From positions 1 through 62,391 of the IMG/VR virus record IMGVR_UViG_3300046004_001609: DNA of 62,391 bases. The stretch is one strand, 5' to 3'. Below, in pieces: positions 24,928 to 44,202 of the stretch. Under the pieces are notes generated by a model, which saw only the letters and a list, made by a program, of their open reading frames with translations, did no database searches and was not told the origin of the DNA. Each line of letters opens with the position of its first letter. Position 1 is the first letter of the stretch. The stretch comes from a virus. The position numbers were made by a program, and so were the translations under genes.

Positions 24928-25842
24928 ATGGTATCTTTAATTCAGCTTTTAAAAGAAATAATTATTAATGAAGGTGGCAATGTATTTAAAAATACAGAGT
25001 ACGACACTCAAGATATACTATTAGCAAATATTGAACCCACAATTAAAAAATTTGTAGATGATTTAGGTAAATTATTTCCAAATAAAAGATCTACATTTTC
25101 TGAATTAACAAGTAAAAGTAATTGGTTAGGTTCAACTGGAAATAAACCACAATCAGGCGACGTAGATATAGCTTATTCATCAGAACATTTTTTTAAAAAT
25201 AAACAAGCCGATGTTGAAGGTTGGGGAATAGATAGAAACGAATATACCCAATTATACGAAAAAAGTAAAAAGGCGGCTCGCTCAGCAACTGATGATCAAA
25301 TTCAATTAAAATCATTAATTCAATTAATTGTTAAAAAAATTAATGCTAGTGGAGGAGATTTATATGCTAGCGATAAAGCATCAGGAGCAGGGTCTATACA
25401 TTTTTCTTATCCTCAATATGCTACTTCAGGAGAAAAATTAGATTCTAGATCCCAATTAGACATGGATATTGGAGATATGGATTGGTTAAAATTTAGATAT
25501 AATTCTGAATTACCAAAAGATGATCCAAATATTAAAGGTTTACATAGAGGGCAATTAATGTTAGCTATGTTTGCAGCTTTAGGATATACATTTAAAAGTG
25601 GTAGAGGATTTGTTCGTAAAGAAACAGGTGAAACTATTGCTGATAAACCTAAAGAAGCATTAGAAGTATTTAATAAAGAATATAATCCAAAACAATCATT
25701 AACTATGGATGTAGTTAACAATTATGTTAAATTAATGAGTTATATTAAAACTAATTTAAAACCTGAAGACCAAACTAAAACATTAGATATGTTTAAAGAG
25801 GCTGTAAGAAGAGCAGGAGCATATGTTCCTGACAATATTTAA
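24928..25842 (+). CDS. Polymerase-beta-type nucleotidyltransferase with capsid-targeting-like peptide, 304 aa
   Basis: The ATG at 24928 is preferred to an upstream TTG. The N-terminus MVSLIQLLKEIIINEGG is an amphipathic peptide ending in INE-G, a plausible prohead-protease site. The nucleotidyltransferase signature is LGST (67-70), then D78-V-D80 in SGDVDIAYS. A third acidic strand lies near 180 (QLDMDIGDMDW), with further conserved-looking GLHRGQLMLAMFAALGYTFK. The family transfers nucleotides to proteins, RNAs or small molecules; the target is unknown. Six bases separate it from the next gene, which has a second domain of the same superfamily. Confidence 0.7.
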   Translation: MVSLIQLLKEIIINEGGNVFKNTEYDTQDILLANIEPTIKKFVDDLGKLFPNKRSTFSELTSKSNWLGSTGNKPQSGDVDIAYSSEHFFKNKQADVEGWGIDRNEYTQLYEKSKKAARSATDDQIQLKSLIQLIVKKINASGGDLYASDKASGAGSIHFSYPQYATSGEKLDSRSQLDMDIGDMDWLKFRYNSELPKDDPNIKGLHRGQLMLAMFAALGYTFKSGRGFVRKETGETIADKPKEALEVFNKEYNPKQSLTMDVVNNYVKLMSYIKTNLKPEDQTKTLDMFKEAVRRAGAYVPDNI

Positions 25843-25847
25843 TTACT

Positions 25848-28211
25848 ATGAGTGGAGCAGCAGGCGGATCACGTATAAATAAAGAGGATTTAAAAACAAC
25901 AATCCGTGACTATAGAGATAACATCTTAAAACCATTAGGACTAGATAAATCTTATAATATCACTGGTGTACGTTCTAGACCTGAAAAAGATATATTTGGG
26001 GATATAGACATTGTTGTATCGTTTCCTGAAGGTGATAAAAAAGAACTTAAGCAACAATTTGCTAGTTTCTTAACACAAAACGATAAAGTTCCAGTTATTC
26101 CGTCTAAAAATAAAAAATACTTTATACATGGTAATATTGTTTCTACATTATATCCTATAGCAAATAAAGAAGGAGAATATGTTCAAATTGACAATATAGT
26201 AACAGTTACTAAAGAAGAAGGTAAATTTGCTTTTCAAATGTTAGATTTACCCGCCCAAGAACAAACATTAGCTATAGGTTTAGTTAAAACAATATTTACT
26301 GAATTAGATGAAAAACAAGTAGAAAATTTATTTAATGATTTAGGTATTGCAAGTTCTGAAAAACCAGGTGAAGGTGAAGAATATGATTTTAATTTAAACC
26401 CAGCAGAATTAACTTTAAGGATTGTTCCTGTAGGTAAAAATGAGGGTAAACAAATATGGAAGTCAAATAGCTTTGAAGATGTTAAAAAAATATTACTATC
26501 ATTAGGTATTAATATTGAAAAAGATAAATTTGAAGATATTGTATCTAAAATTAAAAAATTTAAAAATAGAAGATCTATAGATCGCCTTAAAGGAATGTTT
26601 GCTAAAAATATACGTGTTGGCGATGCTGAAAAAGAAATTGAAAAAGGTATTAAAAAACAACAAGCATTAGATACAGTAGCTTCTTTAGAGGAAAAATATA
26701 ACCCATTAATAATGGGATTAATTAAACCATTTATTTTAGAAGATATTAATACACAACCTACTATAGCTATATTTCCAGGTAAATTTAAACCACCACATAA
26801 AGATCATTTAGCTCGTATACAAGCAGCGGCAGCCGATGCTGATGAAGTATATGTATTAGTTTCTCCAAAATCCTCAGAAGAAAAACCAAACCAAAAAACT
26901 ATAACTGCTCAACAAAGTGTAGCATTATTTGATTTATATCGTAAAAAAGGATTAATACCTAGTAATGTTAAAATATACATATCTGATAATTTACCTTTTA
27001 AAGGAGATAATGATGAACAACTATCATTTAATTCCCCAGTAAAATCAGCATATGAAATAATGGATAAAAAGGTTGGACCAAATTATATAGCTGTATTTGG
27101 AAAAGAAGAAGATTTAAAAAGATTTGGAAAAGTACCTAAAAACACAGTTGTTAAAAATTATGATGGCTCAGCAGGAAATTTGAGCGCTACAGATTTAAGA
27201 ATTGCTTTAAAAAATGATCAAGATGTTTCTCAATTTCTTCCTAAAGATATAGATACATCTGATATTTTAAAAGAACACTGTGGATGTGATGATTCATTAC
27301 CAACTACATTAAAGGATGCAATGTTATCATTGACTACATATATGATAGAAAATGATATGAATGTATTACCTTTACCTAAAATTAAAATAATAGACAACGA
27401 TTCTGAAAACGCTAATGGTATATTTGGTAAAACAGCATATTATAATCCAAATGAGTGTTCAATAACGTTATTTACATTGAACAGACATCCAAAAGATGTA
27501 TTGCGTTCATATTCTCACGAAATGATTCATCGTATTCAAGATAATGAAGGTAGATTAAAAAATATTAATACTACTAACACAAATGAAGATGATGAGTTAC
27601 TTGAATTAGAAAAAGAAGCTTATTTAAACGGAAATATTACCTTTAGAAATTGGGAAGATAATTTAAAAAATAATATAAATGAATGGATTGTTGATATCCC
27701 AAAATATAATTACACTCAAAAGCTTTCAAATAAAATTTTTTCTCAACTTTATGAATTAAAAGTAAATGAAATAACTCTTAATCCGAACAATGCTGTTGAA
27801 ATATATGGTGATTTAAATAATGGAGATTTTACTGTGGGGGAACATGATTATAATTATAGAATAATAAAATTGGATAAAAATCCATATAGTAGTAATTCAT
27901 TTTATAGTATTGATTTTCATGAAATTGGAAATAAAAATCCCAATCCTTCTTTACCAACAAAAAATGCTAGAGAAAATTATATAAAAATATTATCAACAAT
28001 ATATAAAATTATATTAGATTTTACTAAAGAAGAAAAACCAGAATATATAGGAATATCAAGTTTAGATGAAAGTGGATACGGAAATATTTACAATAACTTA
28101 ACCAAAACAAATAAACTTCCAGGGTATTCAAGAAAAGATGCAGGTTTAAATTTTACATCCAAATCAGGAGAAAAAGGAAAATTTATAGTACTAAAAAGAA
28201 CAGATGTATAA
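25848..28211 (+). CDS. Three-domain fusion: nucleotidyltransferase, NMNAT-like, HExxH metalloprotease, 787 aa
   Basis: Residues 30-240 form a pol-beta-type nucleotidyltransferase with D52/D54 (FGDIDIVVSF). Residues about 240-300 are helical and end LIKPFILED, an amphipathic stretch with an ILE cleavage-like site. Residues 300-470 form a cytidylyltransferase-fold domain: FPGKFKPPHKDHL stands for the HxGH motif (here HKDH) and NLSATDLRIAL for the ISSTxxR motif, as in nicotinamide-nucleotide adenylyltransferases. Residues 480-610 contain YSHEMIHRIQ (about 555-564) and LEKEAY (about 585-590), a zincin-like protease core. The last 170 residues are unrecognised. The gene overlaps the HAD gene by 8 bases. 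It could be a polyprotein cut by the prohead protease. Confidence 0.7.
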   Translation: MSGAAGGSRINKEDLKTTIRDYRDNILKPLGLDKSYNITGVRSRPEKDIFGDIDIVVSFPEGDKKELKQQFASFLTQNDKVPVIPSKNKKYFIHGNIVSTLYPIANKEGEYVQIDNIVTVTKEEGKFAFQMLDLPAQEQTLAIGLVKTIFTELDEKQVENLFNDLGIASSEKPGEGEEYDFNLNPAELTLRIVPVGKNEGKQIWKSNSFEDVKKILLSLGINIEKDKFEDIVSKIKKFKNRRSIDRLKGMFAKNIRVGDAEKEIEKGIKKQQALDTVASLEEKYNPLIMGLIKPFILEDINTQPTIAIFPGKFKPPHKDHLARIQAAAADADEVYVLVSPKSSEEKPNQKTITAQQSVALFDLYRKKGLIPSNVKIYISDNLPFKGDNDEQLSFNSPVKSAYEIMDKKVGPNYIAVFGKEEDLKRFGKVPKNTVVKNYDGSAGNLSATDLRIALKNDQDVSQFLPKDIDTSDILKEHCGCDDSLPTTLKDAMLSLTTYMIENDMNVLPLPKIKIIDNDSENANGIFGKTAYYNPNECSITLFTLNRHPKDVLRSYSHEMIHRIQDNEGRLKNINTTNTNEDDELLELEKEAYLNGNITFRNWEDNLKNNINEWIVDIPKYNYTQKLSNKIFSQLYELKVNEITLNPNNAVEIYGDLNNGDFTVGEHDYNYRIIKLDKNPYSSNSFYSIDFHEIGNKNPNPSLPTKNARENYIKILSTIYKIILDFTKEEKPEYIGISSLDESGYGNIYNNLTKTNKLPGYSRKDAGLNFTSKSGEKGKFIVLKRTDV

Positions 28212-28731
28212 ATTAACAGATATATATCGACAAATTAAAGAAGAAGAAGCACTTCCAACACAACAATACAAAATATATTGTGACATGGATGGTGTATTAT
28301 GTGACTTTGATAGACAATTTGAACAATATGCTAGAATAAGTCCTAAAGCATTTGAATCTAAATTTGGAACAGATAAGTTTTGGGAATTAATAGATAAAAT
28401 AGGTTACATATTTTGGTCTAAAATACCTTGGATGTCAGATGGTAAAAGTTTATGGACATATATTAGTAAATACAAACCCGATTTATTATCAGCTCCATCA
28501 CAAAAGGCATCATCACGCTATGGAAAACGTTTATGGGTAAGTGAAAACATACCAGGAGCTAAATTAATATTAGCTGACAGAGAAAAAAAACAAAATTATT
28601 CAAAGAAAAATTCAATACTTATTGATGATCGCCCTGACACCATTAGTGAATGGAATAGTAGGGGAGGAATTGGTATATTATTTACATCAACAGAACAAAC
28701 AATTAATGATTTGAAAAAATTGGGCTTATGA
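28204..28731 (+). CDS. HAD-superfamily 5'(3')-nucleotidase-like phosphatase, 175 aa
   Basis: The N-terminal 15-residue amphipathic leader MYKLTDIYRQIKEEE precedes the HAD motif I at D27/D29 (CDMDGVLCDFD). SAPSQKASSRYGKRLWVSEN holds the motif-II/III region, and SILIDDRPDTISEWNSRGG (about 137-155) holds the motif-IV Asp pair. The cap FESKFGTDKFWELIDKIG is small, as in the mitochondrial-type deoxyribonucleotidases. It likely dephosphorylates nucleotides. The gene overlaps both neighbours by a few bases. Confidence 0.85.
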   Translation: MYKLTDIYRQIKEEEALPTQQYKIYCDMDGVLCDFDRQFEQYARISPKAFESKFGTDKFWELIDKIGYIFWSKIPWMSDGKSLWTYISKYKPDLLSAPSQKASSRYGKRLWVSENIPGAKLILADREKKQNYSKKNSILIDDRPDTISEWNSRGGIGILFTSTEQTINDLKKLGL

Positions 28732-29315: not shown

Positions 29316-29317
29316 CT

Positions 29318-29842
29318 ATGATTTACAAATACAAATTAGTAGAACAAGAAATGGATGGAGATAATGCAATGCAAAAAGCTTCATATGACTTAGTTCTTAC
29401 TCCAACTACCTTATCTGTTGAAGAAGTAGTTAAAGCATTAGAAAATATAGATAATTACGGAGCATATATATCTAACTTAAGAAACTCAGCTACTGATGTA
29501 AATAAAGCTGTTGAAGCACATTTTGGACCTAGTCAACCTTGGGCTAAAAAAGCAAAAGAAAAAGAAAATGGTAAACCATTCCCAATTAAAACAAAACAAG
29601 CACAAGATGATTTTATTAAAACATTAAAATCAAGACCCAGTTTATTAAACTGGACTATCCAAGGAGAAGTATTACATTTCCCAACAAGTAAAAATCCATC
29701 TAAACAAGTAACTAAAAATATCATTTACACAGTTATGAATAATGCTAAAATCGATTATACTATAGATGATAAAGTAGCGACAAGTGAAGATTCATTACGC
29801 GAAGCAATTAAAGAAATCATTAGAAAAAACATTAAAAAATAA
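29318..29842 (+). CDS. Hypothetical protein with C-terminal amphipathic peptide, 174 aa
   Basis: Not recognised. The core (PTTLSVEEVVKALENIDNYG, KEKENGKPFPIKTKQAQDDF, RPSLLNWTIQGEVLHFPTSK) is alpha/beta. The last 20 residues EDSLREAIKEIIRKNIKK repeat the recurring amphipathic pattern, here at the C-terminus and without a clear cleavage site after it. One base separates it from the next gene. Confidence 0.6.
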   Translation: MIYKYKLVEQEMDGDNAMQKASYDLVLTPTTLSVEEVVKALENIDNYGAYISNLRNSATDVNKAVEAHFGPSQPWAKKAKEKENGKPFPIKTKQAQDDFIKTLKSRPSLLNWTIQGEVLHFPTSKNPSKQVTKNIIYTVMNNAKIDYTIDDKVATSEDSLREAIKEIIRKNIKK

Positions 29843-29843
29843 T

Positions 29844-30413: not shown

Positions 30414-30414
30414 T

Positions 30415-31032: not shown

Positions 31033-31038
31033 AAATAT

Positions 31039-31054
31039 AATATTTATAATAAAA
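31039..31054 (+). promoter_or_regulatory. Late-type promoter motif
   Basis: AATATTTATAATAAAA is an exact consensus copy, 8 bases before the ATG at 31062. Confidence 0.65.
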
Positions 31055-31061
31055 CATTAAA

Positions 31062-31496
31062 ATGACTAATTCATTCGAAAATATGCAAAAATTGGCTTTT
31101 GGTAAAGTACTTATCAAAGAGTCAATGGAAAATACAAAAATGTCTAAATCTGCTTTAAAAGCACACATCCGTGAAATGATTTTAGATGAAGCTAAAAAGA
31201 AAAAAGACAAACCCGAAAATGTAGCTCCACAAGAAGACGTAGATGTTGATCTTAATATGGGTGATGAACAATTACCAGCTGAACCATCGGGTGAAGAATC
31301 AGCAATAAATACAGTACCTACAGCAACTAGTGATATAGGTGATATCGACCCAACAGTAAAATCTATACAGGATTCATTGCAAAAAGCGTTTGCTCAAGCT
31401 AAAACATTAGGTGACGAAAAATTAATGAACCAAATAGGTAATACTATTACAATGCTTGTACGCACTCAAGTATTGGGTCAGCAAGGTATGCAATAA
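31062..31496 (+). CDS. Capsid-cargo-like acidic protein, 144 aa
   Basis: Residues 1-45 contain two amphipathic helices: MTNSFENMQKLAFGKVLIKE and SKSALKAHIREMILDEAKKK, with an LDE-A junction. The centre (VAPQEDVDVDLNMGDEQLPA and after) is acidic and unstructured. The C-terminus VKSIQDSLQKAFAQAKTLGD to the end is a helical hairpin. It is the first gene after a late-type motif and precedes the Hc1-like protein. It is probably a head internal or core-associated protein; this is inference. Confidence 0.6.
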   Translation: MTNSFENMQKLAFGKVLIKESMENTKMSKSALKAHIREMILDEAKKKKDKPENVAPQEDVDVDLNMGDEQLPAEPSGEESAINTVPTATSDIGDIDPTVKSIQDSLQKAFAQAKTLGDEKLMNQIGNTITMLVRTQVLGQQGMQ

Positions 31497-33540: not shown

Positions 33541-34254
33541 ATGAAACACGCAGATCTTATAAAACGATTAATCAAAGAGGCATTATCTAAGCCGCTTAAA
33601 GAAGATACATGCAATTGTGGTTGTCATTCATGTGAAAATGTAGGTAATAAGGGTCCAGTACTTAACGAAAGTTTAGGTGCTCGTATATTAATGACCGAAA
33701 ATATGCAATACCATGTTAAAAATAAATTAGCAATTACTGAAAATACATTCAGATATGGTTCGCAAGCATTTTTAGATTTATGGGCTGAAGCGCGTTATTT
33801 ATATTCTCGCAATGCTATTCATTTAAATGATGATGATAAAGCAATTATATTAGAAACGAATTTAGGTGAATATGGAATGTTTGAAGGTAAAAAAGTAGCC
33901 TTAGACATACCTATGTTAGAAGATGATGCATTAGCAGCAGACGAAGAAAAAATTGCTGACGAACCTATATCAGAAGATAAAAAAAAGAATCCACCATTAA
34001 ATAAACCAAAACGTGGTGGATCTAAGAAATTTTATGTGTATATAAGAGACAAAGGTAAAATTAAAAAAGTTAGCTTTGGTGATACATCAGGATTATCTGC
34101 AAAAATAAATAACCCACAAGCACGTCAAGCATTTGCAAAACGTCATGACTGTGCTAACAAAAAGGATAAAACAAAAGCATCATATTGGAGCTGTCGCTTA
34201 CCTAGATATGCTAAATTATTAGGAATTAAATCAACATTTAGTGGATATTGGTAA
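33541..34254 (+). CDS. Capsid-targeting-like protein with conserved phage RHxC domain, 237 aa
   Basis: The N-terminal peptide MKHADLIKRLIKEALSKPLK is followed by ED. A Cys cluster CNCGCHSC near residue 22-29 may bind metal. The C-terminal 80 residues (SKKFYVYIRDKGKIKKVSFG, INNPQARQAFAKRHDCANKK, ASYWSCRLPRYAKLLG) form a domain widespread in tailed phages, with spaced Cys, His and Trp, whose function I cannot name. The stop overlaps the next gene as TAATG. Confidence 0.7.
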   Translation: MKHADLIKRLIKEALSKPLKEDTCNCGCHSCENVGNKGPVLNESLGARILMTENMQYHVKNKLAITENTFRYGSQAFLDLWAEARYLYSRNAIHLNDDDKAIILETNLGEYGMFEGKKVALDIPMLEDDALAADEEKIADEPISEDKKKNPPLNKPKRGGSKKFYVYIRDKGKIKKVSFGDTSGLSAKINNPQARQAFAKRHDCANKKDKTKASYWSCRLPRYAKLLGIKSTFSGYW

Positions 34255-34625
34255 TGGATAAACTTAGAAAATTAGTTAGAGAAGAAATACTTAAAGCATT
34301 AAGTGAAGGCTCTGAAGAAAAATTGTATAAAATTGAAGGATTACTTGTTTCAGATAATAACAAGAAAACACAATCTCAATTATTATCAGATATCCGTGCG
34401 ATAACTGGTGTTACTACAATTGATACTAATGAATATATACCTCGCTTACCCAAAGAGAACCGTTCATATAATAGATTAATGGTTAAAATAGATCCATATC
34501 CTTATTTAAAAAATGGCGAATTTAATATAGAAACACTTAATCAAGTTATTAATAACATTAATAATATAGTTGGTGTAGTTACATTTAAAGTTAAAAATCC
34601 ACAATTGATTAATATTGGGATATAG
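34254..34625 (+). CDS. Small protein with capsid-targeting-like N-terminus, 123 aa
   Basis: The ATG at 34254 overlaps the previous stop; the open frame upstream from a TTG is not needed. MDKLRKLVREEILKALSEGS has an LSE-G junction typical of the recurring peptide. The body (KIEGLLVSDNNKKTQSQLLS, DIRAITGVTTIDTNEYIPRL, NRLMVKIDPYPYLK) looks like a ferredoxin-like alpha/beta domain, with VVTFKVKNP as its last strand. Confidence 0.7.
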   Translation: MDKLRKLVREEILKALSEGSEEKLYKIEGLLVSDNNKKTQSQLLSDIRAITGVTTIDTNEYIPRLPKENRSYNRLMVKIDPYPYLKNGEFNIETLNQVINNINNIVGVVTFKVKNPQLINIGI

Positions 34626-35079
34626 TGATTAAATTAACAGACATATTAAAAGAATTACTCCTTGAAGATCGTTGTAAACGAATTGCTGATCGTAAGTATG
34701 ATAAACCATCTGCTTACAAATCAGGTGCTATTGTTAGGTGTCGTAAAGGTAATATTTGGAAAGATTTAAAAGAAACAGATAACCCACAATCAGGTAAAGC
34801 TACTCCATATGGATCAGGATATGCTAAAGTTAAAGAGGTTATTAAAAAAATGTTAAAAGAAGATAAATCTTTACGTAAATGGTTTTCACGTAAAGGTGCC
34901 CAGGTAAAAAAGGTGGATGGGTTGATTGTAATACTTGTCGCGAAGTAGATGGTAAAACAAAATGTAAAGCATGTGGTAGAGAAAAAGGCGAAAAACGCTC
35001 AAAATACCCATCATGTCGCCCCACACCATCTCAATGTAAAACACCTGGTAAAGGTAAAAAATGGGGAAAAACAAAATAA
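34625..35079 (+). CDS. Frame-shifted small basic protein, 151 aa if joined
   Basis: The first reading frame starts at GTG 34625 with MIKLTDILKELLLEDRCK, a capsid-targeting-like peptide with an LLE-D site, and runs through LRKWFSRKGA. It then drifts into non-conserved QVKKVDGLIVILVAK. The -1 frame from 34900 instead reads PGKKGGWVDCNTC, KCKACGREKGEKRSKYPSCR, PTPSQCKTPGKGKKWGKTK, a Cys- and Lys-rich ending I recognise from phage proteins that have KxWF-GAPGKKGGW in one frame. The junction is GGTGCCCAGGT (34895-34905); one extra C would restore the frame. It is either a programmed -1 shift, a mutation or a homopolymer error. Confidence 0.75.
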
Positions 35080-35104
35080 AATTGGTTCTTACCTAAAAAA
35101 TAAG

Positions 35105-35118: not shown

Positions 35119-37920
35119 ATGGAAAACACGTACAAATTCATAACACACGTAATAGGAAATTTATTCCCACTTAACGAATACTCAGATGGTGAGATGAAAA
35201 GGTTAATGGATAAGTTTAAAGAGGAAGCTGATGACTTAAACATTAAAATTTCAGACGAACAACTTAAAAAATATATTGAACGTTTTGATCAATTAAAAAA
35301 TTCACCTAAAATTGAGGAAAAAGATTTACGTAGATGGCCTTTATCTAAATTAATTAAATTAGTATCTTCATCTGAAGGAGCAGATTCTGAAGAAGAAGAA
35401 GGTCCAGATGTAATATATAGTGAAAACGGGTATACTGTTTATAGTGGTGGAAATGAAGAATTATGTCAAAGACATAGAAATGATGTTCCATGGTGTATAA
35501 CTAGAGGTTCATTTGGAAACTATAGATACAGTGGAGGTAAAGGTTACCCATCATTTTACTTAATAAGTAATACTAATCTGCCAGAAAGTAATAAATTAAG
35601 TTTTGTTGCTATTCAAGTTAGAGATGAAGAGGAAAATCGTAAATATGTTTGGACCCCTAGAGATAACAGCCCAAATGAATCTTCACCAATGGGATGGAGT
35701 ACATTAACTTCAGATATTCCTTGGTTAAATGAAATTCCTAATATCAAAAATATACTTAAAAATGTTCCTTTATCATCAAAAGAAAAAGCAACTCAGGTAT
35801 ATAGTAAATCTGGAAGTGAAATATCTATACGTCAATGGGTAAGTATGCCCTTTAACGAAAAAAAGCAATATTTAGTAGTTAGAAAAAAAAGCAAAATATT
35901 TAATGATATTACAAATGAAGAATTTGTAGCTAATTACTTACCTAACTATCCTCAATTAGCGGCATTCGCAGCCGTTACTCCTGGTGTAGTAGATCCAATG
36001 TTATTACTCAAAAATTTAGATAAATTTTCAGCTAATGATAGAAAATCTATAACTGCTAATTTACATAATTTAGTAGATATAAAAGAATTACAAAAAGAAA
36101 CATTACCATTTGACGTTAAAAAATTATTAACTATTTTAAACAAGTGGGATCTTAAAAATGACGAAAGAATATATGTAACCAAAAATGGTGAAGCTATAGT
36201 TAAGTTAACATTTGGATCAGACATTAATGTAGGAGTTTTTACAGCAGAAGATGATTATCCAAGTATTAAATTAAATAAAAGAACAGCTAAATTTTTATTA
36301 GATTATCCTAAAATAGATGAAATTCCATTTAATAATTTAATTAAATTAGCTAGTGCAGATATAATAGATAAAGATTTTATTACTAAAGTTCTCCAAAAAG
36401 CAGAACAAGACCCAAATTCAGCCATTATAGTTAAAGATACTGAAAATGGTAAAATTTTATTAGATTCAAATTCATTTACTTCTTATAAAATTGAAGGAGA
36501 TAAAATTTCCCCAATCCTATTTAGTAGTGATGAAGTACAAAATATATTAGCATCAGAAACTGAAAATAGTGGCTTTCAAAAATCAGCAGTAGATTTAGTA
36601 TTTGCAGAAGAAAATATACCCGACCAAATAGATAAAGATTCATTTCTTAGTATATTAAAGAATACTCCATATGATAAAAGAACAAAAGATGGTATTGTAA
36701 TAATTCCGTTAGAAAATGGTATAGGGGCATTTAATACAGATGCAGCTCAAGGCAATCCATTTCAATTTTTATATGGTGTTGATCGTCCATGGAATGAATA
36801 TATTAACTATACTCCGAGATTAACAGCAGACATTTGGAGAGAATATTTTGCTTATTTAAGAAATAAAAATGCATCATACACCGATGAACAATTAATGAGA
36901 GTTCTTAATAATTTACCTTCTCAAAGAAAAGCATTTGTAGAAGCATTACCACCAATGGTTGCTGGTAGTATGTACAAACCAGCAATTTATGAAAATGAAG
37001 CTTATCTTGTTAATACTAGAAATCCAAGAGATAGTAAGAGAATATCGGGTACTGGCAAAATAGTTAAAGGAGCATTATCATCATCTCAAGCAAGTAGAAT
37101 ATTAGGAACAACAGTTCAAGCACCAGCAGGACAAGCTCAAGCAGCACCTGCAGCAGCACAACCTGGAGTACCTAGAAGAGGAAGACCAGCAGGAGTAGCA
37201 GGTGCACCTAGACCAGTAGCTGCACCAGCAGCAGGTGGAACACCAACATTTGAATTAATGGTTGGAAGAGGTTTAGAAACAGCATTTAATGGATTACCTA
37301 GACCAGTTAGAAATAGATTAGTAATAGCTACACAAGAAACAGGTTTATCTAGAGGAGCTTCTCGCCGTAATAATCAATTAGGAAATAGAGGTAGAGTTGT
37401 GAGTACTTGGAATTCTGGACCTAGTAGCATATATTTTATTAGATTAACTAATGGTACTATGATAGCATCAATTAATATACAACCAGGAAATGGCAATTAT
37501 ATACTTATTCCAGGCCAAGAATACGTTAGATTAAATTCACCAACTGAATTACTATCAGCATTACAAGCAAGAGAGCTAGCTGAAGTATTTATTGCTGAAT
37601 TTATGTCTTCAAATCCAACAATGATTGATGAAACTAAAAAAGTAGTAGATTTTTATAATAGAAAAATTAAAAACAAACCAAATATGAAATTAAATGAATT
37701 AAAAAATCTTATTAAAAATGAGATTAGAGCAGTTTTAGCTGAAAACGCACCCGCAAAGGAGAAAGAAAAAGTAACTACTCCAACTAAAACTCCAAGCAAA
37801 AACCCATTACATCCAAATCCTAATATTAATCCAAAGACTAAACCAAAAGCACAAAAAGAAGGTATGTCTAAAGGAATAGCTGACATTGTAAAAAAATATA
37901 AATCATTAAAAAAGAAATAA
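35119..37920 (+). CDS. Large multi-domain protein with internal capsid-targeting-like peptide, 933 aa
   Basis: Residues about 95-200 contain YTVYSGGNEELCQRHRND, VPWCITR and YPSFYLISNT. This looks like a domain seen in phage and plasmid proteins with a Cys...WCT/WCI motif followed by a short-chain sandwich. Residues 200-660 are helical repeats without a name. Residues about 664-712 are an Ala/Pro/Gly-rich linker (AGQAQAAPAAAQPGVPRRGR). Then comes a compact domain with FELMVGRGLETAFNGLPRPV and RNRLVIATQETGLSRGASRR. Residues 856-877 read MKLNELKNLIKNEIRAVLAE then NAP, the recurring peptide placed internally, followed by a basic Pro/Lys tail. It could be a polyprotein or a head protein that is trimmed during maturation. 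Confidence 0.65.
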   Translation: MENTYKFITHVIGNLFPLNEYSDGEMKRLMDKFKEEADDLNIKISDEQLKKYIERFDQLKNSPKIEEKDLRRWPLSKLIKLVSSSEGADSEEEEGPDVIYSENGYTVYSGGNEELCQRHRNDVPWCITRGSFGNYRYSGGKGYPSFYLISNTNLPESNKLSFVAIQVRDEEENRKYVWTPRDNSPNESSPMGWSTLTSDIPWLNEIPNIKNILKNVPLSSKEKATQVYSKSGSEISIRQWVSMPFNEKKQYLVVRKKSKIFNDITNEEFVANYLPNYPQLAAFAAVTPGVVDPMLLLKNLDKFSANDRKSITANLHNLVDIKELQKETLPFDVKKLLTILNKWDLKNDERIYVTKNGEAIVKLTFGSDINVGVFTAEDDYPSIKLNKRTAKFLLDYPKIDEIPFNNLIKLASADIIDKDFITKVLQKAEQDPNSAIIVKDTENGKILLDSNSFTSYKIEGDKISPILFSSDEVQNILASETENSGFQKSAVDLVFAEENIPDQIDKDSFLSILKNTPYDKRTKDGIVIIPLENGIGAFNTDAAQGNPFQFLYGVDRPWNEYINYTPRLTADIWREYFAYLRNKNASYTDEQLMRVLNNLPSQRKAFVEALPPMVAGSMYKPAIYENEAYLVNTRNPRDSKRISGTGKIVKGALSSSQASRILGTTVQAPAGQAQAAPAAAQPGVPRRGRPAGVAGAPRPVAAPAAGGTPTFELMVGRGLETAFNGLPRPVRNRLVIATQETGLSRGASRRNNQLGNRGRVVSTWNSGPSSIYFIRLTNGTMIASINIQPGNGNYILIPGQEYVRLNSPTELLSALQARELAEVFIAEFMSSNPTMIDETKKVVDFYNRKIKNKPNMKLNELKNLIKNEIRAVLAENAPAKEKEKVTTPTKTPSKNPLHPNPNINPKTKPKAQKEGMSKGIADIVKKYKSLKKK

Positions 37921-38972: not shown

Positions 38973-38977
38973 ACAAT

Positions 38978-39415
38978 ATGAATAACTTTGATTTAAGAAA
39001 ATATTTAACTGAAGGTAAATTATATGAGGCAGCTATGTCTTGTCCTTTACCCACTCAAAATTTAGAACTTAACACTAAAAATAGAGACTCATCCATTAAA
39101 GCAGATTATATTAAATATGGTCCTTTAAATGTTGATGAACCTGGAGATTTCTGGGAAGAATTAGCAGGACATTGGGATACAACGGTTGAAGCTGCTCAAC
39201 AATCTTTATGTGGTAATTGTGCTGCATTTGATATATCTCCAAGAATGGAAGATTGTATGCCTGGATCATTATCAGATGATGATGGTAAACTAGGATATTG
39301 TTGGATGCATAGTTTTAAATGCCATTCAGCTCGTACTTGTAGAACATGGGCTAAAGGAGGTCCTATAGTTAAAGATGTTATATCTTATGATTGGCAAGAA
39401 CGTAAAGGAGAATGA
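38978..39415 (+). CDS. Cys-rich, metal- or Fe-S-binding protein, 145 aa
   Basis: The leader MNNFDLRKYLTEGKLYEAAM has an LTE-G junction of the recurring class. The C-terminal half holds eight Cys in order: CGNC (about 83-86), C98, C112, C119, C125 and neighbours, in CGNCAAFDISPRMEDCMPGS, LGYCWMHSFKCHSARTCRTW and AKGGP. Spacing resembles small iron-sulphur or zinc proteins of T4-like phages. It may carry a redox or structural metal site. It overlaps the next small gene by 4 bases. Confidence 0.65.
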   Translation: MNNFDLRKYLTEGKLYEAAMSCPLPTQNLELNTKNRDSSIKADYIKYGPLNVDEPGDFWEELAGHWDTTVEAAQQSLCGNCAAFDISPRMEDCMPGSLSDDDGKLGYCWMHSFKCHSARTCRTWAKGGPIVKDVISYDWQERKGE

Positions 39416-39558
39416 TTAAACTAATAGATATATTAAAAGAATTAGTAACCAAAACAGAAATCATTTGTGATAACTGTGGGTGGAGATGGAAAATTGTAGA
39501 TGGTGGAGATGATTTATACATTTGTCACAAATGTGGACATGACAATACCCCAGAATGA
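39412..39558 (+). CDS. Zinc-ribbon micro-protein with capsid-targeting-like leader, 48 aa
   Basis: This gene is short but clear. MIKLIDILKELVTKTE is the amphipathic leader. The rest is one zinc ribbon, CDNCGWRWK (about 19-27) and CHKCGHDN (about 38-45), with Trp-rich spacing and the ending NTPE. The same ribbon recurs in many T4-like phage genomes. It is embedded in an overlap chain (start inside the previous gene, stop overlapping the next by 4 bases), which supports translation. Confidence 0.75.
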   Translation: MIKLIDILKELVTKTEIICDNCGWRWKIVDGGDDLYICHKCGHDNTPE

Positions 39559-39815
39559 CCCCATACACCGACATAGAAGTTACTGATAAATACATTATTC
39601 GTGAATTTGATGAAAACATCGATCCAATCGAATTAATGTGGCATCGTGATGATGAAAGTCGTACATTAGAAATAATTGGTGAAACAGATTGGAAAATACA
39701 GTTAGATAATAAATTACCGATCTTACTAGAAAGCCATATATTTATACCAAAACACGAGTATCATAGAGTAATTAAAGGTACAAAAACATTAAAATTAAAA
39801 ATATACAAAAAATGA
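39555..39815 (+). CDS. Small cupin-like conserved phage protein, 86 aa
   Basis: The sequence has a single beta-barrel-like pattern: YIIREFDENIDPIELMWHRD, DESRTLEIIGETDWKIQLDN, KLPILLESHIFIPKHEYHRV, IKGTKTLKLKIYKK. The WHRD...GW...P...IP...YHRVIKG order is one I associate with small single-domain cupins of cyanophages and other T4-like phages. Function is unknown. The start overlaps the zinc ribbon gene. Confidence 0.65.
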   Translation: MTPYTDIEVTDKYIIREFDENIDPIELMWHRDDESRTLEIIGETDWKIQLDNKLPILLESHIFIPKHEYHRVIKGTKTLKLKIYKK

Positions 39816-40432
39816 GTAAATTAAGACAACTAATCCGCGAATCAATTACTAATTATATTAGTGAAATAAATGAGGCGGGAGATATTTCAGCTTGTGAGTC
39901 AAAAATATTAAAAACTCGAGAAGCTATTGAACTTCGTGAAAAGAAAATAAGTAAGGAGGGCATCGATGAAGCTTATCATGATATGCTTGATGAAAACAAA
40001 TTAAAAGAATTTGCTAAAGAAATTAAAATATTAGAGAAAAGTTTAGCTAAACATGAAAAAATGTTAGAAAAACTTAAATCAAAAGCTAATAAAGGAGAAA
40101 AAGTAGAAGATACTGAAGAAAAAGAAATCGTTGATGAAGTTTCAATTGATGAAAACGCAGAAGATGGTCCATATAAAGTAGATCCAAAAGATAGAAAATA
40201 TTTATCAATGCCAGGAATGGAAAATTTTGATGAAGATGAAAGATTTGATGCTGATGGCACTCCAAACGAAGAAGGAATGTATGATGCAGAAGGAAATCGT
40301 ATTTCATTTGCAGATATTGATAAAGCAATGTATGATGGAGAAGCAGAATATATGAATGAATCATTTTTACACATGCAAAAATTAGCTGGTGTAATTACTG
40401 AAGCACAATACAAAGATAAGTTAAAGAAATAA
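39812..40432 (+). CDS. Capsid-targeting-like acidic protein, 206 aa
   Basis: The leader MSKLRQLIRESITNYISEIN contains ISE and NEA candidate sites. A long charged coil follows (LDENKLKEFAKEIKILEKSL and KHEKMLEKLKSKANKGEKVE), then an acidic disordered part. The C-terminal helix ends FLHMQKLAGVITEAQYKDKL, a segment shaped like the start of the same class of peptide. It resembles internal head or core proteins in composition. It ends the operon at a terminator. Confidence 0.65.
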   Translation: MSKLRQLIRESITNYISEINEAGDISACESKILKTREAIELREKKISKEGIDEAYHDMLDENKLKEFAKEIKILEKSLAKHEKMLEKLKSKANKGEKVEDTEEKEIVDEVSIDENAEDGPYKVDPKDRKYLSMPGMENFDEDERFDADGTPNEEGMYDAEGNRISFADIDKAMYDGEAEYMNESFLHMQKLAGVITEAQYKDKLKK

Positions 40433-40488
40433 ATTTTTATAGAACACATTCATTGCGTGTTCGAATATAACAAAGTTAAAGGAGTAGT

Positions 40489-40523
40489 GGCCTGATCTTA
40501 TTTAAAGGATCGGGCCTCTTTAA
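40489..40523 (+). terminator. Intrinsic terminator
   Basis: GGCCTGATC (40489-40497) pairs with GATCGGGCC (40508-40516) with one G-U pair and a 10-base loop, and is followed by TCTTTAATTT. A smaller hairpin GAACAC/GTGTTC lies just upstream (40442-40462). Confidence 0.8.
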
Positions 40524-40555
40524 TTTGGCTTACTTAATAAAATAACTTATATTTA
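40524..40555 (+). promoter_or_regulatory. Host-type promoter
   Basis: TTTG (40524-40527), 20 bases, TATATTTA (40548-40555). The boxes and spacing are identical to the promoter at 2750. It lies after a terminator and 15 bases ahead of the next ATG, so this operon is probably early. Confidence 0.6.
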
Positions 40556-40570
40556 CTAAAAATAAAGGTT

Positions 40571-41044
40571 ATGAATATATTTTATATTAATGAAGACCCA
40601 ATCATTGCAGCACGTGAGCTGGCAGATGATCATATTAGAAAAATGCAAATTGAATCTGCACAAATGTGTTGTACCGCTCATTGGGAAACAGGTAAAGAAG
40701 CACCATATAAACGTGCTCATAAAAACCACCCATCAACAATATGGGTAAGACAATCTATCCAACATTATAGATGGCTTATAGCTCATGGTTTAGAAATTTG
40801 TAATGAATTTGAAAAACGCTATGGTAAATCTCATAAAACAAAAGAAGTATTAGAATGGTGTAAAATAAATGAACCTAATATTCCTAACAATGAGTTTATA
40901 ACCCCCCCACAATGTATGCCTGATGAATTTAAAGGACCAAATACTTTGGATGCTTATAAAAGATTTTATATATTAGATAAAGTAAAAATTAAAAAATTAG
41001 ATTGGAAAAAATTAAACAACAAACCAGAATGGATAAAAGAATAG
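40571..41044 (+). CDS. Pyrimidine-dimer glycosylase-family protein (Pyr_excise-like), 157 aa
   Basis: The opening MNIFYINEDPIIAARELADD HIRKMQIESAQMCCTAHW, then APYKRAHKNHPSTIWVRQSI and LIAHGLEICNEFEKRYGKSH, reproduces the order of a small phage and virus family related to T4 endonuclease V (DenV). In that family a pyrimidine dimer is excised by glycosylase and lyase activity using the N-terminal amine. Length is 157, against 138 in DenV. The residue homologous to catalytic Glu cannot be assigned by eye. It shares 16 bases with the FAD dehydrogenase gene. Confidence 0.7.
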   Translation: MNIFYINEDPIIAARELADDHIRKMQIESAQMCCTAHWETGKEAPYKRAHKNHPSTIWVRQSIQHYRWLIAHGLEICNEFEKRYGKSHKTKEVLEWCKINEPNIPNNEFITPPQCMPDEFKGPNTLDAYKRFYILDKVKIKKLDWKKLNNKPEWIKE

Positions 41045-42354
41045 TAATTGTAGGAAGTGGGGTTGCAGGTATAAATGCTGCAACTAAATTAGTAGATAAT
41101 GGATACCCAGGTGAACTTATTACTATCATTGATAAAGGAAATGACCCACACAATCGTTTACCTGAAGAAGTAATGACAGGTATGTTAGGAGCAGGAGGTT
41201 GGAGTGACGGTAAATTAACATATCATACTGAAATTGGAGGGCAATTAGCAAAATATTGTGGTGAAGACAAAGCAATGGATTTAATGAAACAAGTAGTAGA
41301 TAACTTTACTCGTTTCCATCCTAAACCAGAAGAAATATCTTTATCCAACCCAATTGAAGAACCAGAATTTATTAAACCATATTTTGGATTACGTTTATTC
41401 CCTGTATGGCATATCGGTTCAAATTATTTACATGAAATTGCTAAAAATTGGTACTCATATTTAGTTGATAAAGGTGTTAAGTTTTTATGGAATGCTGAAG
41501 TGGATAATATATCATTTAAAGATGAAGAGGTTTGTGGATATCTTAATGTACATCAAGGGAAAAGTGACGATGATGTATTTCAAATATTGTACGATAAATT
41601 AATATTCGCAGTAGGCAAATCAGGTATTGATTTTGCTCAAAAATTAGCAGATGACTATAAATTACCTAATGAACCTAAATCAGTACAAATAGGTGTTCGA
41701 TTTGAAGCACCACAAAAATATTTCCAAAAATTAATCGATGTATCTTATGATTTCAAACTTTATCAGAAATTTGATAATATTTCTTTACGTAGCTTTTGTA
41801 CTAACAATAACGCTGCTTATGTGGCTGTTGAAGAAACTTATGGTGATGTTAGTTACAATGGTCACGCCAAAAAAGGAGAACAATTCCGGAACGACATGAC
41901 TAACTTTGGTATCTTAATGGAAATTAAAGGTATTGAAGATCCATTTAAATGGTCAAGAGATGTAGTTGATAAATTACAATCAAATGGAACAGGATTGTAT
42001 TACTCACCAGGCAATACTCGTAAACCAGGATTAACATCAGAATGTACAACTGTATCTGCTACACAAATAGATTGGTTAGAGTTAATTAAAGTAACAGAAG
42101 TGATGAATCCATACTTTGAATATATTGTTAATTTTATTGATGACATGAAAAAGGTGTTCCCTGAAATGGGTGATGATTGGGGAATGTATATACCTGAAGT
42201 AAAATATTTAAGTCCTGAACCATTAGTAAATTATACTGACTTATCATTAAATAAATATCCAAATGTTCATTTTGTTGGTGATGCATTAAGTGCTCGTGGT
42301 ATTACTGTTAGTGGTGCGCATGGAATTTATGTTGCAGAAGCCTTGCTTTCGTAA
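41029..42354 (+). CDS. FAD-dependent dehydrogenase, 441 aa
   Basis: The start MDKRIVIVGSGVAGINAATK (G9, G11, G14) is a Rossmann FAD-binding motif. The ATG at 41029 is chosen because it puts this motif at the N-terminus. The middle holds VWHIGSNYLHEIAKNWYSYL, a substrate-side helix, and a redox-like SFCTNNNAAYVAVEETYGDV. The C-terminus closes the FAD site with NVHFVGDALSARGITVSGAH. The closest type I know is the COG2509-like FAD dehydrogenases. A phage copy of a complete dehydrogenase is unusual. It could modify a small molecule or a nucleotide derivative. Confidence 0.8.
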   Translation: MDKRIVIVGSGVAGINAATKLVDNGYPGELITIIDKGNDPHNRLPEEVMTGMLGAGGWSDGKLTYHTEIGGQLAKYCGEDKAMDLMKQVVDNFTRFHPKPEEISLSNPIEEPEFIKPYFGLRLFPVWHIGSNYLHEIAKNWYSYLVDKGVKFLWNAEVDNISFKDEEVCGYLNVHQGKSDDDVFQILYDKLIFAVGKSGIDFAQKLADDYKLPNEPKSVQIGVRFEAPQKYFQKLIDVSYDFKLYQKFDNISLRSFCTNNNAAYVAVEETYGDVSYNGHAKKGEQFRNDMTNFGILMEIKGIEDPFKWSRDVVDKLQSNGTGLYYSPGNTRKPGLTSECTTVSATQIDWLELIKVTEVMNPYFEYIVNFIDDMKKVFPEMGDDWGMYIPEVKYLSPEPLVNYTDLSLNKYPNVHFVGDALSARGITVSGAHGIYVAEALLS

Positions 42355-42364
42355 TATTTATATT
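42353..42364 (+). promoter_or_regulatory. Late-type promoter motif
   Basis: AATATTTATATT overlaps the end of the dehydrogenase gene by two bases. It departs from the consensus at the last positions. Confidence 0.4.
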
Positions 42365-42365
42365 C

Positions 42366-42407
42366 ATGGAAGATAACGACTACCCTGACTTTATTGAAAA
42401 TTTTTAA
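42366..42407 (+). CDS. Possible 13-aa peptide
   Basis: The frame reads MEDNDYPDFIENF and then TAA, directly under a late-type motif and 9 bases before the next gene. It is acidic and aromatic. It is too short to judge coding by composition; it may be a leader peptide or chance. Confidence 0.25.
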   Translation: MEDNDYPDFIENF

Positions 42408-42416
42408 ATATAAATT

Positions 42417-42719
42417 ATGAAAAACTTAAAAGAACTTGTACGTAAACAGTTAAAGGAAATGGCTCGCCCAGCTCAATCTTATACAATTGGAGACCTAACA
42501 AAAGCTGACACATTAATCAGTTCATATGCTCAAACTGAAAGATTTAAATGGATAGGTAATACAATTCAAATAATAAAAGATGCAGGTGAAACTGGTATTT
42601 TACTTATGGATTTATTAGATAAATTATCTGAAGAATATAGACAAAATAAAACATCACAAGAAATAAATCCACCACTAGGACGTTTAGTAGATAGTGGAAT
42701 ATTAAGAAGAGGTAGATAA
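42417..42719 (+). CDS. Winged-helix protein with capsid-targeting-like leader, 100 aa
   Basis: Residues 1-17 MKNLKELVRKQLKEMARP form the recurring amphipathic leader. Residues 30-100 look like a winged-helix DNA-binding domain (KWIGNTIQIIKDAGETGILL, MDLLDKLSEEYRQNKTSQEI, PPLGRLVDSGILRRGR). The similar wing-helix domain recurs in the 290-aa protein two genes on. Two leader-tagged DNA-binding proteins suggest DNA-bound cargo or regulators delivered with the genome. The gene ends at a terminator. Confidence 0.7.
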   Translation: MKNLKELVRKQLKEMARPAQSYTIGDLTKADTLISSYAQTERFKWIGNTIQIIKDAGETGILLMDLLDKLSEEYRQNKTSQEINPPLGRLVDSGILRRGR

Positions 42720-42726
42720 ATTAGAG

Positions 42727-42751
42727 GGCTTGGATTACCAAGCCTTCATTT
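42727..42751 (+). terminator. Intrinsic terminator
   Basis: Perfect 7-bp stem GGCTTGG/CCAAGCC with loop ATTA, followed by TTCATTTG. It begins 8 bases after the winged-helix stop. The stem also excludes a longer upstream start for the next gene. Confidence 0.85.
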
Positions 42752-42774
42752 GTACATTTACAAAAACAAAAGTT

Positions 42775-43305
42775 ATGAAAATAGGATTTACAGGAACAGT
42801 CTCGGTTGGAAAAACCACATTAGTAAAATCGCTACAAGAATTACCTGAATTTAAACACTATAATTTTTCTACTGAACGTAGTAAATATTTACGTGATTTA
42901 GGTATACCTTTAAATACGGATAGTACATTAAAAGGACAAACAGTATTCTTAGCAGAAAGATGCAGTGAATTAATTCAAACAAACGTTATAACGGATAGAA
43001 CAGTAATAGATGTTATGGCATTTACACTCAATGCTCAATCAATTGACATCGCAGATAAACACGGATTTGAAGAATATGCTTCTCGTTTTATTGATGAATA
43101 TGATTGGATATTTTATGTAAGCCCATCAGGTGTAGGTATTGAAGATAATAATGTACGTACTACAGATGCTGAATATCGTAAACAAATAGATAAAACAATT
43201 AAACATTTATGTTCTTTAAATTTAGACCGTATCCAAAATTTTGGTATTATAACGGGTTCTAATGAGGATAGAATCAGACAAATACAATCTTATTTAAATT
43301 TGTAA
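42775..43305 (+). CDS. P-loop kinase, NadR/AAA_28-like, 176 aa
   Basis: The ATG at 42775 is chosen because it places the Walker A motif GTVSVGKT at residues 7-14 and lies after the terminator hairpin. The pattern KSLQELPEFKHYNFSTERSK, then VITDRTVIDVMAFTLNAQSI, resembles nucleoside/nicotinamide-riboside-type kinases (NadR-like ATPase fold). It would phosphorylate a small molecule. Together with the NMNAT-like domain of the 787-aa protein it could belong to an NAD-related pathway, but the substrate is not shown. Confidence 0.75.
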   Translation: MKIGFTGTVSVGKTTLVKSLQELPEFKHYNFSTERSKYLRDLGIPLNTDSTLKGQTVFLAERCSELIQTNVITDRTVIDVMAFTLNAQSIDIADKHGFEEYASRFIDEYDWIFYVSPSGVGIEDNNVRTTDAEYRKQIDKTIKHLCSLNLDRIQNFGIITGSNEDRIRQIQSYLNL

Positions 43306-43318
43306 TATTTATAATAAA
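43304..43318 (+). promoter_or_regulatory. Late-type promoter motif
   Basis: AATATTTATAATAAA is an exact consensus copy that starts within the stop codon of the kinase gene, 11 bases before the 43330 start. Confidence 0.65.
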
Positions 43319-43329
43319 ACTCTACATAA

Positions 43330-44202
43330 ATGAAACGCAAAGACTTATATAAATACATTCGTACTGAAATTATTAATGAATTAACTGAGGATGCAACAGC
43401 AATGGTAACTAGCAAAGCTGGTACTAAATCAGTATCATATAAAAATCCAACAGAATTAGATGCTTTAAAAAGAGATTCTAATGTATCAAGTATTACTACT
43501 ACAGCAGGTCAAAAAATTAAAGAGGCTCGTAAAGGTAGTAGTATCAAAGCTGGTGAAAATTTTGCTGCTATTAAAAGTGCATATGCCGGTAGTATAATTG
43601 AAAGAATTTTAAATAAAATTGAAGAAGCAGGTGATGCAGGTGTAACACCAAAAGAAATAATGGTGGCTGTAGGTATTAAAGCCCCATCTCAATTAAATCC
43701 AATAATGAGAGAACTTATGGAATTAGGTGCTATTTCAGGTCCACCTCCAAGAGAAGAAGCTGAACCAGAAGAAATTACACCTGAAGATGATTTAGCAAGT
43801 ATCGGCATTCCAAAAGTAACTGACAACCCAGAAGATAAAGAAGTAGATGACGATGAATTAGTTGTAGCGGATGATGAATATTACAAATCAGAAGAGGAAG
43901 AAGATTCAACTGAAGAAGAACCTAAAGTAATAGATATTAAAGCTGCAGATAAAGAAGCTGAAAAAGTAGTAGGTGGAAACTCAAATGCTAAAAAATTATC
44001 TCCTGCAGATGAAGAAAAATATACTAAACTTAAAGCCGGTATAATAGCAAAAATAACAAAAATCAAAAAATTACCAGTGGCAAAACGAGTAACATCAGAT
44101 GACTTTAAAATTTTAAAACAATTAATTGCTAGAGAAGATGTTAAAAAATTATTTAAAGATAAAGGTGTTAGTTTAAAAAATGTAGTTTCAGATGTAATGT
44201 AA
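43330..44202 (+). CDS. Winged-helix protein with capsid-targeting-like leader, 290 aa
   Basis: The leader MKRKDLYKYIRTEIINELTE is followed by D (LTE-D junction). Residues about 88-140 (IERILNKIEEAGDAGVTPKE, IMVAVGIKAPSQLNPIMREL, MELGAISG) are a winged-helix domain similar to the 100-aa neighbour. A long acidic disordered middle follows, then a C-terminal helical domain (LPVAKRVTSDDFKILKQLIA). It is probably DNA-binding. Role as cargo or late regulator is inference. Confidence 0.7.
   Translation: MKRKDLYKYIRTEIINELTEDATAMVTSKAGTKSVSYKNPTELDALKRDSNVSSITTTAGQKIKEARKGSSIKAGENFAAIKSAYAGSIIERILNKIEEAGDAGVTPKEIMVAVGIKAPSQLNPIMRELMELGAISGPPPREEAEPEEITPEDDLASIGIPKVTDNPEDKEVDDDELVVADDEYYKSEEEEDSTEEEPKVIDIKAADKEAEKVVGGNSNAKKLSPADEEKYTKLKAGIIAKITKIKKLPVAKRVTSDDFKILKQLIAREDVKKLFKDKGVSLKNVVSDVM

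What the first reader, a model, noticed from the sequence alone, without database searches (positions are those of the whole stretch)
24928..44202. Candidate capsid-cargo system: many unrelated proteins share a cleavable amphipathic targeting peptide
At least a dozen proteins begin with (or contain) M(K)xxLxxLI+ExLxE peptides ending in (L/I)xE followed by G, D, A or N. Examples: 2280 (LAE-D), 24928 (INE-G), 28204 (MYKLTDIYRQIKEEE), 34254 (LSE-G), 34625 (LLE-D), 38978 (LTE-G), 39412, 39812, 42417 and 43330 (LTE-D). Internal or C-terminal copies occur at 25848, 29318, 35119 and 49918. T4 internal proteins carry N-terminal capsid-targeting sequences cut by gp21 after such sites, and a gp21-like protease is encoded at 51080. 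The attached domains are very different: nucleotidyltransferases, HAD phosphatase, metalloprotease, zinc ribbons, winged helices, possible nuclease. I infer a modular packaging tag that loads an enzyme set into the head, perhaps injected to take over the host. Seen: the peptides. Known: T4 precedent. Inferred: packaging and injection.
Basis: partly seen in the sequence, partly recalled or inferred. Interest (0 to 1): 0.9.

Follow-up and report, generated by a model that had tools for sequence, protein, structure and literature searches.

The report
Phage cargo tags that mimic scaffold ends
This virus of bacteria and its relatives put a few interchangeable short address labels, one of them a copy of the tail end of the head-building scaffold, on many unrelated proteins, each with a cutting site facing the protein, which is what one expects if they are loaded into the virus head and then cut free.

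Summary
The window is a T4-like phage contig with S77 (gp21-type) protease, gp20 portal and gp23 capsid genes. About a dozen window genes start with short amphipathic leaders, most ending (L/I)xE. In relatives these resolve into four tag classes: A (MKKSELKQIIREEI..), B (MDNFDLKKYLVEN..), C (MNKEFLKMQKLAGLITE), D (MIKLTDILKE..), on roughly 100 unrelated protein bodies. Class C matches the C-terminus of the scaffold encoded just upstream of gp23, a motif conserved at 74 of 74 such loci. In 144 contexts, 133 are at a protein end, with the (L/I/V/M)xE site on the body side: 61/63 N-terminal and 68/70 C-terminal copies. Homologous bodies occur with different tags (B/D, C/B, D/C, C/A). In the cultured relative immuto, one homolog starts exactly at the predicted mature N-terminus. 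Bacteroidetes phages without S77 have no B or C tags, and class A is not enriched there. Best explanation: cleavable prohead-targeting tags, a lineage-specific expansion of the T4 capsid-targeting principle in which cargo copies the scaffold's docking end. Packaging and cleavage are strongly inferred; injection is untested. "Enzyme set" is overstated: most cargo has no known domain. Class A/D matches are individually weak.

The parts
2280..2339 (+). Class A tag, MKRSELQSLINECIAEVLAE|D, on a 140-aa protein
24928..24972 (+). Class D tag, MVSLIQLLKEIIINE|GGN, on a polymerase-beta-like nucleotidyltransferase fold; immuto homolog starts at MGGNVF
   Evidence: S3, L4, L8, I13, E15 invariant in 10 homologs; residues 1-16 pLDDT <50
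28204..28242 (+). Class D tag, MYKLTDIYRQIKE|EEA, on an NT5C/HAD deoxyribonucleotidase-like protein
29780..29842 (+). C-terminal class A copy, SE|DSLREAIKEIIRKNIKK, of the 29318 protein; the homologs in L189 and L191 have MSE|N and VDE|N at the same place
31062..31190 (+). Tandem tags: degenerate class C (SFENMQKLAFGKVLIKE|S) then class A (KSALKAHIREMILDE|A)
   Evidence: the LAFG variant also ends several relatives' scaffolds
33541..33603 (+). Class A tag, MKHADLIKRLIKEALSKPLKE|D, on a phrog_7595 protein
34254..34307 (+). Class A tag, MDKLRKLVREEILKALSE|G
34625..34666 (+). Class D tag (GTG start), MIKLTDILKELLLE|D, on a DUF5872-like protein whose reading frame is shifted near its end
37684..37743 (+). 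Internal class A tag, MKLNELKNLIKNEIRAVLAE|N, in ORF 35119; relatives have this segment as a separate small tagged gene
38978..39013 (+). Class B tag, MNNFDLRKYLTE|G, on a Cys-rich protein; four homologs carry class D at the same place
39412..39441 (+). Class D-like leader, MIKLIDILKE, on a zinc-ribbon protein, without a canonical site at the body
39812..39874 (+). Class A tag, MSKLRQLIRESITNYISEINE|A, N-terminus of a doubly tagged protein
40358..40432 (+). C-terminal class C copy of the same protein, NE|SFLHMQKLAGVITE|AQYKDKLKK
42417..42458 (+). Class A tag, MKNLKELVRKQLKE|MARP; relatives of this family also carry a class C tag at the C-terminus
43330..43389 (+). Class A tag, MKRKDLYKYIRTEIINELTE|D
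49164..49916 (+). Probable prohead core protein at the gp67/gp68 position, with an internal class A-like segment IDE|NLVKELVRKALEE|ESATG
   Evidence: synteny; weak phrog_1220 head protein
49918..51078 (+). Probable prohead core protein, N-terminal INE|G site and C-terminal class A tag VDE|SKLRSVIKSMIKESLNK
51080..51682 (+). S77 (gp21-type) prohead protease, the presumed tag-cutting enzyme
   Evidence: PF03420 E 1.3e-32, phrog_207 9.9e-59
51884..52861 (+). Scaffold (gp22 position); C-terminus IIE|NDAFARMRELAGLKK is the class C motif
   Evidence: weak phrog_11209, E 0.024; motif at 74 of 74 loci
52897..54567 (+). Major capsid protein gp23, with N-terminal LLE|S, LLE|G, ILE|N motifs like the B/C tag sites
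   Evidence: PF07068 E 9.8e-74

Best explanation
These phages use short terminal docking peptides to pull cargo proteins into the prohead core while it assembles. Class C copies the C-terminal end of the scaffold, and class A copies segments of the gp67/gp68-position core proteins, so cargo joins the core as the scaffold does. The S77 protease then cuts after (L/I)xE on the body side of each tag, releasing the mature protein into the head while the tag leaves with the degraded core. Released cargo would be ejected with the DNA at the next infection. Shown: tags, their positions, site orientation, scaffold identity and exchangeability. Inferred: binding, packaging, cleavage and ejection.
For: (1) Class C sits at protein ends in 133 of 144 contexts among 5354 proteins; shuffles give about 0.6 hits per 2000 proteins; 0 of 326 control proteins have it. 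(2) The site is on the body side: downstream in 61/63 N-terminal copies, upstream in 68/70 C-terminal copies (only 5/70 downstream), background 0.28. An independent DNA scan whose pattern contains no Glu gave 44/44 and 24/24. (3) The scaffold upstream of gp23 ends in this motif at 67/74 loci strictly and 74/74 with LAFG/RFQKLAG variants. (4) Tag exchange: W38978 B/D, L277 or G001:18486 C / L133 B / immuto remote A, L187 C / L252 A, G004:103667 D / L258 C. (5) The immuto homolog of 24928 starts at MGGNVF with in-frame stops upstream. (6) P1' is S/G/A/N/D/T in 96% (B) and 92% (C) of sites versus 39% background, as in gp23 propeptides. (7) Class A tags within a genome have random synonymous codons (0.514 same versus 0.541 expected), so selection acts on the peptide. 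(8) Tagged genes with a free upstream gap carry the TATTTATA element of head and tail genes more often: 12/19 versus 120/459, p 0.001. (9) T4 precedent: CTS and gp21 cleavage after L/I-X-E (PMC9026906).
Against: No virion proteomics or N-terminal mapping could be reached. Class A and D patterns also match non-cargo proteins, notably the terminase N-terminus MSQDLKQIIREEY, and their P1' residues are no better than background (which scores the first site, not the last). 43 of 114 class A regex hits have no site near the tag end. Some tagged genes lie far from the head module. The scaffold assignment rests mainly on gene order. T4 gp22 lacks the class C ending.
Confidence: 0.82

Rival explanations
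1. The tagged proteins are structural or temporary prohead core parts (gp67/gp68-like), made to fill and shape the core and then degraded, not delivered to the host.
For: Core proteins 49164 and 49918 carry class A segments, the scaffold carries class C, and many tagged proteins are small and acidic without known domains.
Against: Tags also occur on enzyme-like bodies: NT5C, polymerase-beta-like NTase, zeta-toxin-type kinase, alpha/beta hydrolase. The repertoire varies between relatives, unlike an essential core. Sites lie at the tag/body border rather than throughout.
Confidence: 0.2
2. The leaders are 5' gene modules spread by recombination, with promoter and start codon, and have no targeting role.
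For: B, C and D tags in one genome share codons somewhat more than expected (0.63-0.72 versus about 0.52), so some shuffling is recent. Many tagged genes share an upstream TATTTATA element.
Against: Class A codons are randomised while the peptide is kept. Class C also occurs at C-termini, including the scaffold, where no 5' module could act. Site orientation is unexplained.
Confidence: 0.05
3. The tags recruit proteins to another site (inner membrane, portal or neck, tail) and the (L/I)xE sites are incidental.
For: Amphipathic helices often bind membranes (general knowledge); one class A family (9969) lies among baseplate genes.
Against: Body-side sites with gp23-like P1' residues, the scaffold C-terminus match, and absence of B and C from phages without S77.
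Confidence: 0.07
4. The leaders are chance N-terminal amphipathic helices in an AT-rich, K/E/L/I-rich phage.
For: True for part of the class A/D matches: the terminase start and several regex hits in controls.
Against: Shuffle and control-phage tests, terminal restriction and orientation of class C, tag exchange.
Confidence: 0.02

Closest known systems
T4 internal proteins IPI-IPIII and Alt with capsid targeting sequence, cut by gp21
   Same: S77 protease, gp20/gp23 head, short leader ending (L/I)xE on otherwise unrelated proteins; Alt is also processed at its C-terminus (PMC9026906, PMC3012670)
   Different: At least four leader classes of about 12-24 residues instead of one 10-residue CTS; roughly 100 body families; tags at either end; one class copies the scaffold C-terminus, which T4 gp22 does not have
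phiKZ / SPN3US giant-phage inner-head and ejection proteins with propeptides
   Same: gp21-related protease cuts after xxE and many cargo proteins are packaged (PMC5694885, PMC10052503)
   Different: Those propeptides are mostly over 100 residues and not described as interchangeable short tags
P1 Dar proteins (DarB N-terminal packaging signal)
   Same: N-terminal 30 residues suffice to load a reporter into the head (PMC9024508)
   Different: The paper reports no consensus among Dar N-termini and no separate scaffold in P1
Encapsulin cargo-loading peptides (from general knowledge, not tested)
   Same: Short terminal peptide on varied enzymes loads them into a protein shell
   Different: Not described as protease-released, and no scaffold homolog is copied

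Membership tests
T4 CTS / internal-protein system | S77 (gp21-type) prohead protease in the same genome | tested here: met
   Window and six near-complete relatives; annotated in immuto
T4 CTS / internal-protein system | Short N-terminal peptide ending (L/I)xE on proteins with unrelated mature parts | tested here: met
   B 19/19, C 24/26, A 71/114 with a site near the tag end; about 100 body families
T4 CTS / internal-protein system | Leader sequence similar to T4 MKTYQEFIAE | not tested
   Compared by eye and from memory only; class B is loosely similar
T4 CTS / internal-protein system | Leader is sufficient for packaging | not testable with these tools
   Needs fusion and virion assay
T4 CTS / internal-protein system | Leader removed by the protease in the prohead | not testable with these tools
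   Site placement and P1' residues agree but no cleavage data
T4 CTS / internal-protein system | Proteins ejected into the host | not testable with these tools
   None
T4 gp22-type scaffold (51884) | Gene between protease and gp23, scaffold homology | tested here: inconclusive
   Position fits; phrog_11209 head scaffolding E 0.024 only
T4 gp22-type scaffold (51884) | C-terminus shared with T4 gp22 | tested here: not met
   T4 gp22 ends VSVYAKVASRF, no LAG motif

The most novel reading that the evidence does not exclude
A widespread lineage of aquatic T4-like phages runs a general address code for its head: four interchangeable terminal tags, at least one taken from the scaffold's own docking end, by which a hundred or more families of unrelated proteins are loaded, cut free and delivered to new hosts, so that new effectors are gained simply by acquiring a tag.
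Probability: 0.45. Interest if true: 0.88.

Novelty: new variant of a known kind. Interest (0 to 1): 0.74.

Why it matters
It gives a sequence-level rule for predicting which of the many unknown phage proteins enter the virion and probably the host first. It suggests how cargo is recruited (by copying scaffold ends). A cultured phage, immuto, makes it directly testable. I found no paper holding the string MQKLAG, and in the papers read here the concept is described mainly for the few T4 internal proteins, giant-phage propeptides and P1 DarB.

Tried and rejected
Taking every class A match as cargo: rejected because the terminase N-terminus matches. Internal copy at 25848: no convincing tag seen. 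GYPD and LQEQYN motifs as extra tags: no support; the second regex was faulty. Structure of the 38978 family: model too poor to use (pLDDT 38). T4 gp22 as bearer of the class C ending: not found. Recent duplication of tag DNA as sole cause: rejected for class A by codon randomisation. PADLOC matches of cargo: five single weak hits, not interpreted. My strictest regex undercounts tags and is not used for totals.
Full report
What the window is. The 62,391-base contig is a virus record encoding an S77 prohead protease at 51080 (PF03420, E 1.3e-32; phrog_207, 9.9e-59), a T4-type portal (PF07230), a T4-type terminase (PF03237) and gp23 (PF07068, E 9.8e-74). Gene order from 44786 is terminase, portal, three small core-position genes, protease, scaffold-position gene, gp23. 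Its nearest cultured relative in the phage collection is Flavobacterium phage vB_FspM_immuto_2-6A (gp23 58% identical), fetched whole.

Observation. The leaders are present as stated, except that 39412 lacks a site at its body border and 25848 shows no convincing copy. A regex for the leader finds 8 of 70 window genes against 1.2 +/- 0.9 in shuffles; because the regex was written from these leaders this number is partly circular. In the S77 phage set it finds 57 of 1470 against 21.4 +/- 4.5, and in four Bacteroidetes phages without S77, 3 of 287 against 5.3 +/- 2.3. The bare (L/I)xE motif in the first 32 residues is likewise in excess only in the S77 set: 579 against 447 +/- 14, versus 93 against 94.7 +/- 7 in controls. 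The excess is not even across relatives: it is clear in the window, immuto, G001 and G004, and absent for this regex in G002, G005 and G006. The control phages are FCL-2, crAss001, phi14:2 (half the genome) and 11b; that they lack S77 is taken from their annotation and family, not from a search.

Four tag classes. Reading the N-termini of immuto and six near-complete relatives separates the leaders into A (MKKSELKQIIREEI...LNE), B (MDNFDLKKYLVEN/MNNFDLRKYLTEG), C (MNKEFLKMQKLAGLITE) and D (MIKLTDILKE, MISLVQLLKE). Three neighbouring genes in L279 carry B, A and C in turn. Clustering the bodies gave 67 families in a first set and 95 to 108 in the enlarged set, depending on the linkage rule; these are counts from a simple ORF caller and BLAST linkage, not curated families.

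Class C and the scaffold. The class C motif ends the protein encoded directly upstream of gp23. At 74 gp23 loci with an ORF over 150 aa ending less than 400 nt upstream, 67 end in the motif and the other seven end in LAFG or RFQKLAG variants. I call this protein the scaffold by position (gp22 of T4 lies there) and by a weak profile match (phrog_11209, E 0.024). In the combined set of 5354 proteins the motif occurs in 144 distinct contexts: 63 N-terminal, 70 C-terminal, 11 internal. At N-termini the [LIVM]xE site lies downstream in 61 of 63; at C-termini it lies upstream in 68 of 70 and downstream in 5; the background rate is 0.28. A separate scan of IMG/VR for DNA encoding FLxMQKLAG, a pattern without Glu, gave 44 of 44 N-terminal copies with the site downstream and 24 of 24 C-terminal copies with it upstream; of 11 internal copies nine have sites on both sides. 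Tags of one class share ancestry, so these are not independent trials; the contrast between the two ends is the informative part. Of 17 such contigs of 44 kb or more, ten hold S77, including all three of at least 129 kb; the rest are shorter fragments.

Exchange of tags on one body. The 38978 family carries class B in the window and class D in L049, L130, L312 and L277 with the site Glu in one alignment column. L133:1448 (B) and G001:18486 (C) share 65% identity over 175-177 aa, L277:949 (C) belongs to the same family, and a remote immuto homolog carries class A. L187:6375 (C) and L252:2249 (A) share their body, as do G004:103667 (D) and L258:593 (C). In the 24928 family ten homologs keep S3, L4, L8, I13 and E15 of the leader invariant, while the immuto homolog starts at MGGNVF, exactly after the predicted cut, with in-frame stops upstream. 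The predicted structure of 24928 leaves residues 1-16 at low confidence (pLDDT below 50) with the folded body after them; its nearest solved folds are all DNA polymerase beta, though weakly (E 0.016 to 0.07).

Further evidence. P1' residues after the site are S, G, A, N, D or T in 96% (B) and 92% (C) against 39% in background, and the gp23 propeptides show the same preference; classes A and D do not show it when the first site is scored. Identical residues of class A tags within a genome use the same codon no more often than chance (0.514 against 0.541), so the peptide and not the DNA is conserved; B, C and D show some shared codons, so part of the shuffling is recent. Tagged genes with a free upstream gap have TATTTATA within 45 nt in 12 of 19 cases against 120 of 459 (Fisher p 0.001); the same element precedes immuto terminase, portal and tail genes. 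This suggests late expression but no promoter was tested.

Cargo. Of 102 representative tagged proteins few match any Pfam family: NT5C, zeta-toxin-type kinase, alpha/beta hydrolase or thioesterase, GNAT, TusA, DUF5872 and other DUFs; PHROGs adds little. In the window, 28204 is deoxyribonucleotidase-like (phrog_2643, 8.4e-25) and 25848, untagged at its start, joins an NTase-like part, a cytidylyltransferase-like part and an HEMIH stretch that looks like a zinc protease motif. Neighbouring enzymes 40571 (Pyr_excise), 41002 (FAD oxidoreductase) and 42730 (AAA_28) are untagged, so tagging is selective.

Mechanism. T4 internal proteins are drawn into the core by the first 10 residues and gp21 cuts after L/I-X-E (PMC9026906; PMC3012670). 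The data here fit the same principle with a specific addition: class C copies the scaffold's own end and class A copies segments of the gp67/gp68-position core proteins, so cargo should join the core in the way scaffold and core proteins do, and the body-side cut should release it. Whether class C binds the shell or the scaffold core is open. Ejection into the host is by analogy only.

Limits. Gene starts come from a simple ORF caller; class A and D assignments of single genes are weak and the terminase N-terminus is a clear false positive. The search of open papers found no report of this motif, but most subscription papers are not held, so prior description cannot be excluded.

Noticed in passing
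34625-35080: The DUF5872-like gene is frame-shifted: its usual C-terminus (SKYPSCRPTPSQCKTPGKGKKWGKTK) lies in another frame after about 34900, either a real mutation or an assembly error.
   Followed up: partly
35119-37920: The last ~80 residues of this 933-aa ORF correspond to a small separate tagged gene in relatives (L103:1444, L175:20438, L188:22626), so the ORF looks like a gene fusion or contains an internal start.
   Followed up: partly
window, immuto and relatives: An (A)TATTTATAA element lies shortly upstream of many structural and tagged genes, mostly in gene orientation; candidate late promoter.
   Followed up: partly
44786-44830 and all terminase loci: The large terminase of this lineage starts MSQDLKQIIREEY, resembling class A tags without a cleavage site.
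   Followed up: no
L211:9175-9978 (G002): A protein with the class D leader MISLVQLLEE and a P-loop kinase start (GAPGAGKSS), probably the zeta-toxin-type Pfam hit; nearly the same leader as the unrelated 24928 nucleotidyltransferase family.
   Followed up: no
40571-41044: Pyrimidine-dimer glycosylase (Pyr_excise, E 1.1e-5) in the middle of the tagged region, itself untagged.
   Followed up: no
9969-10334: A class A-like leader on a protein next to baseplate genes, with counterparts in immuto, G001, G004 and G005; unclear whether it is cargo or a tail part.
   Followed up: no
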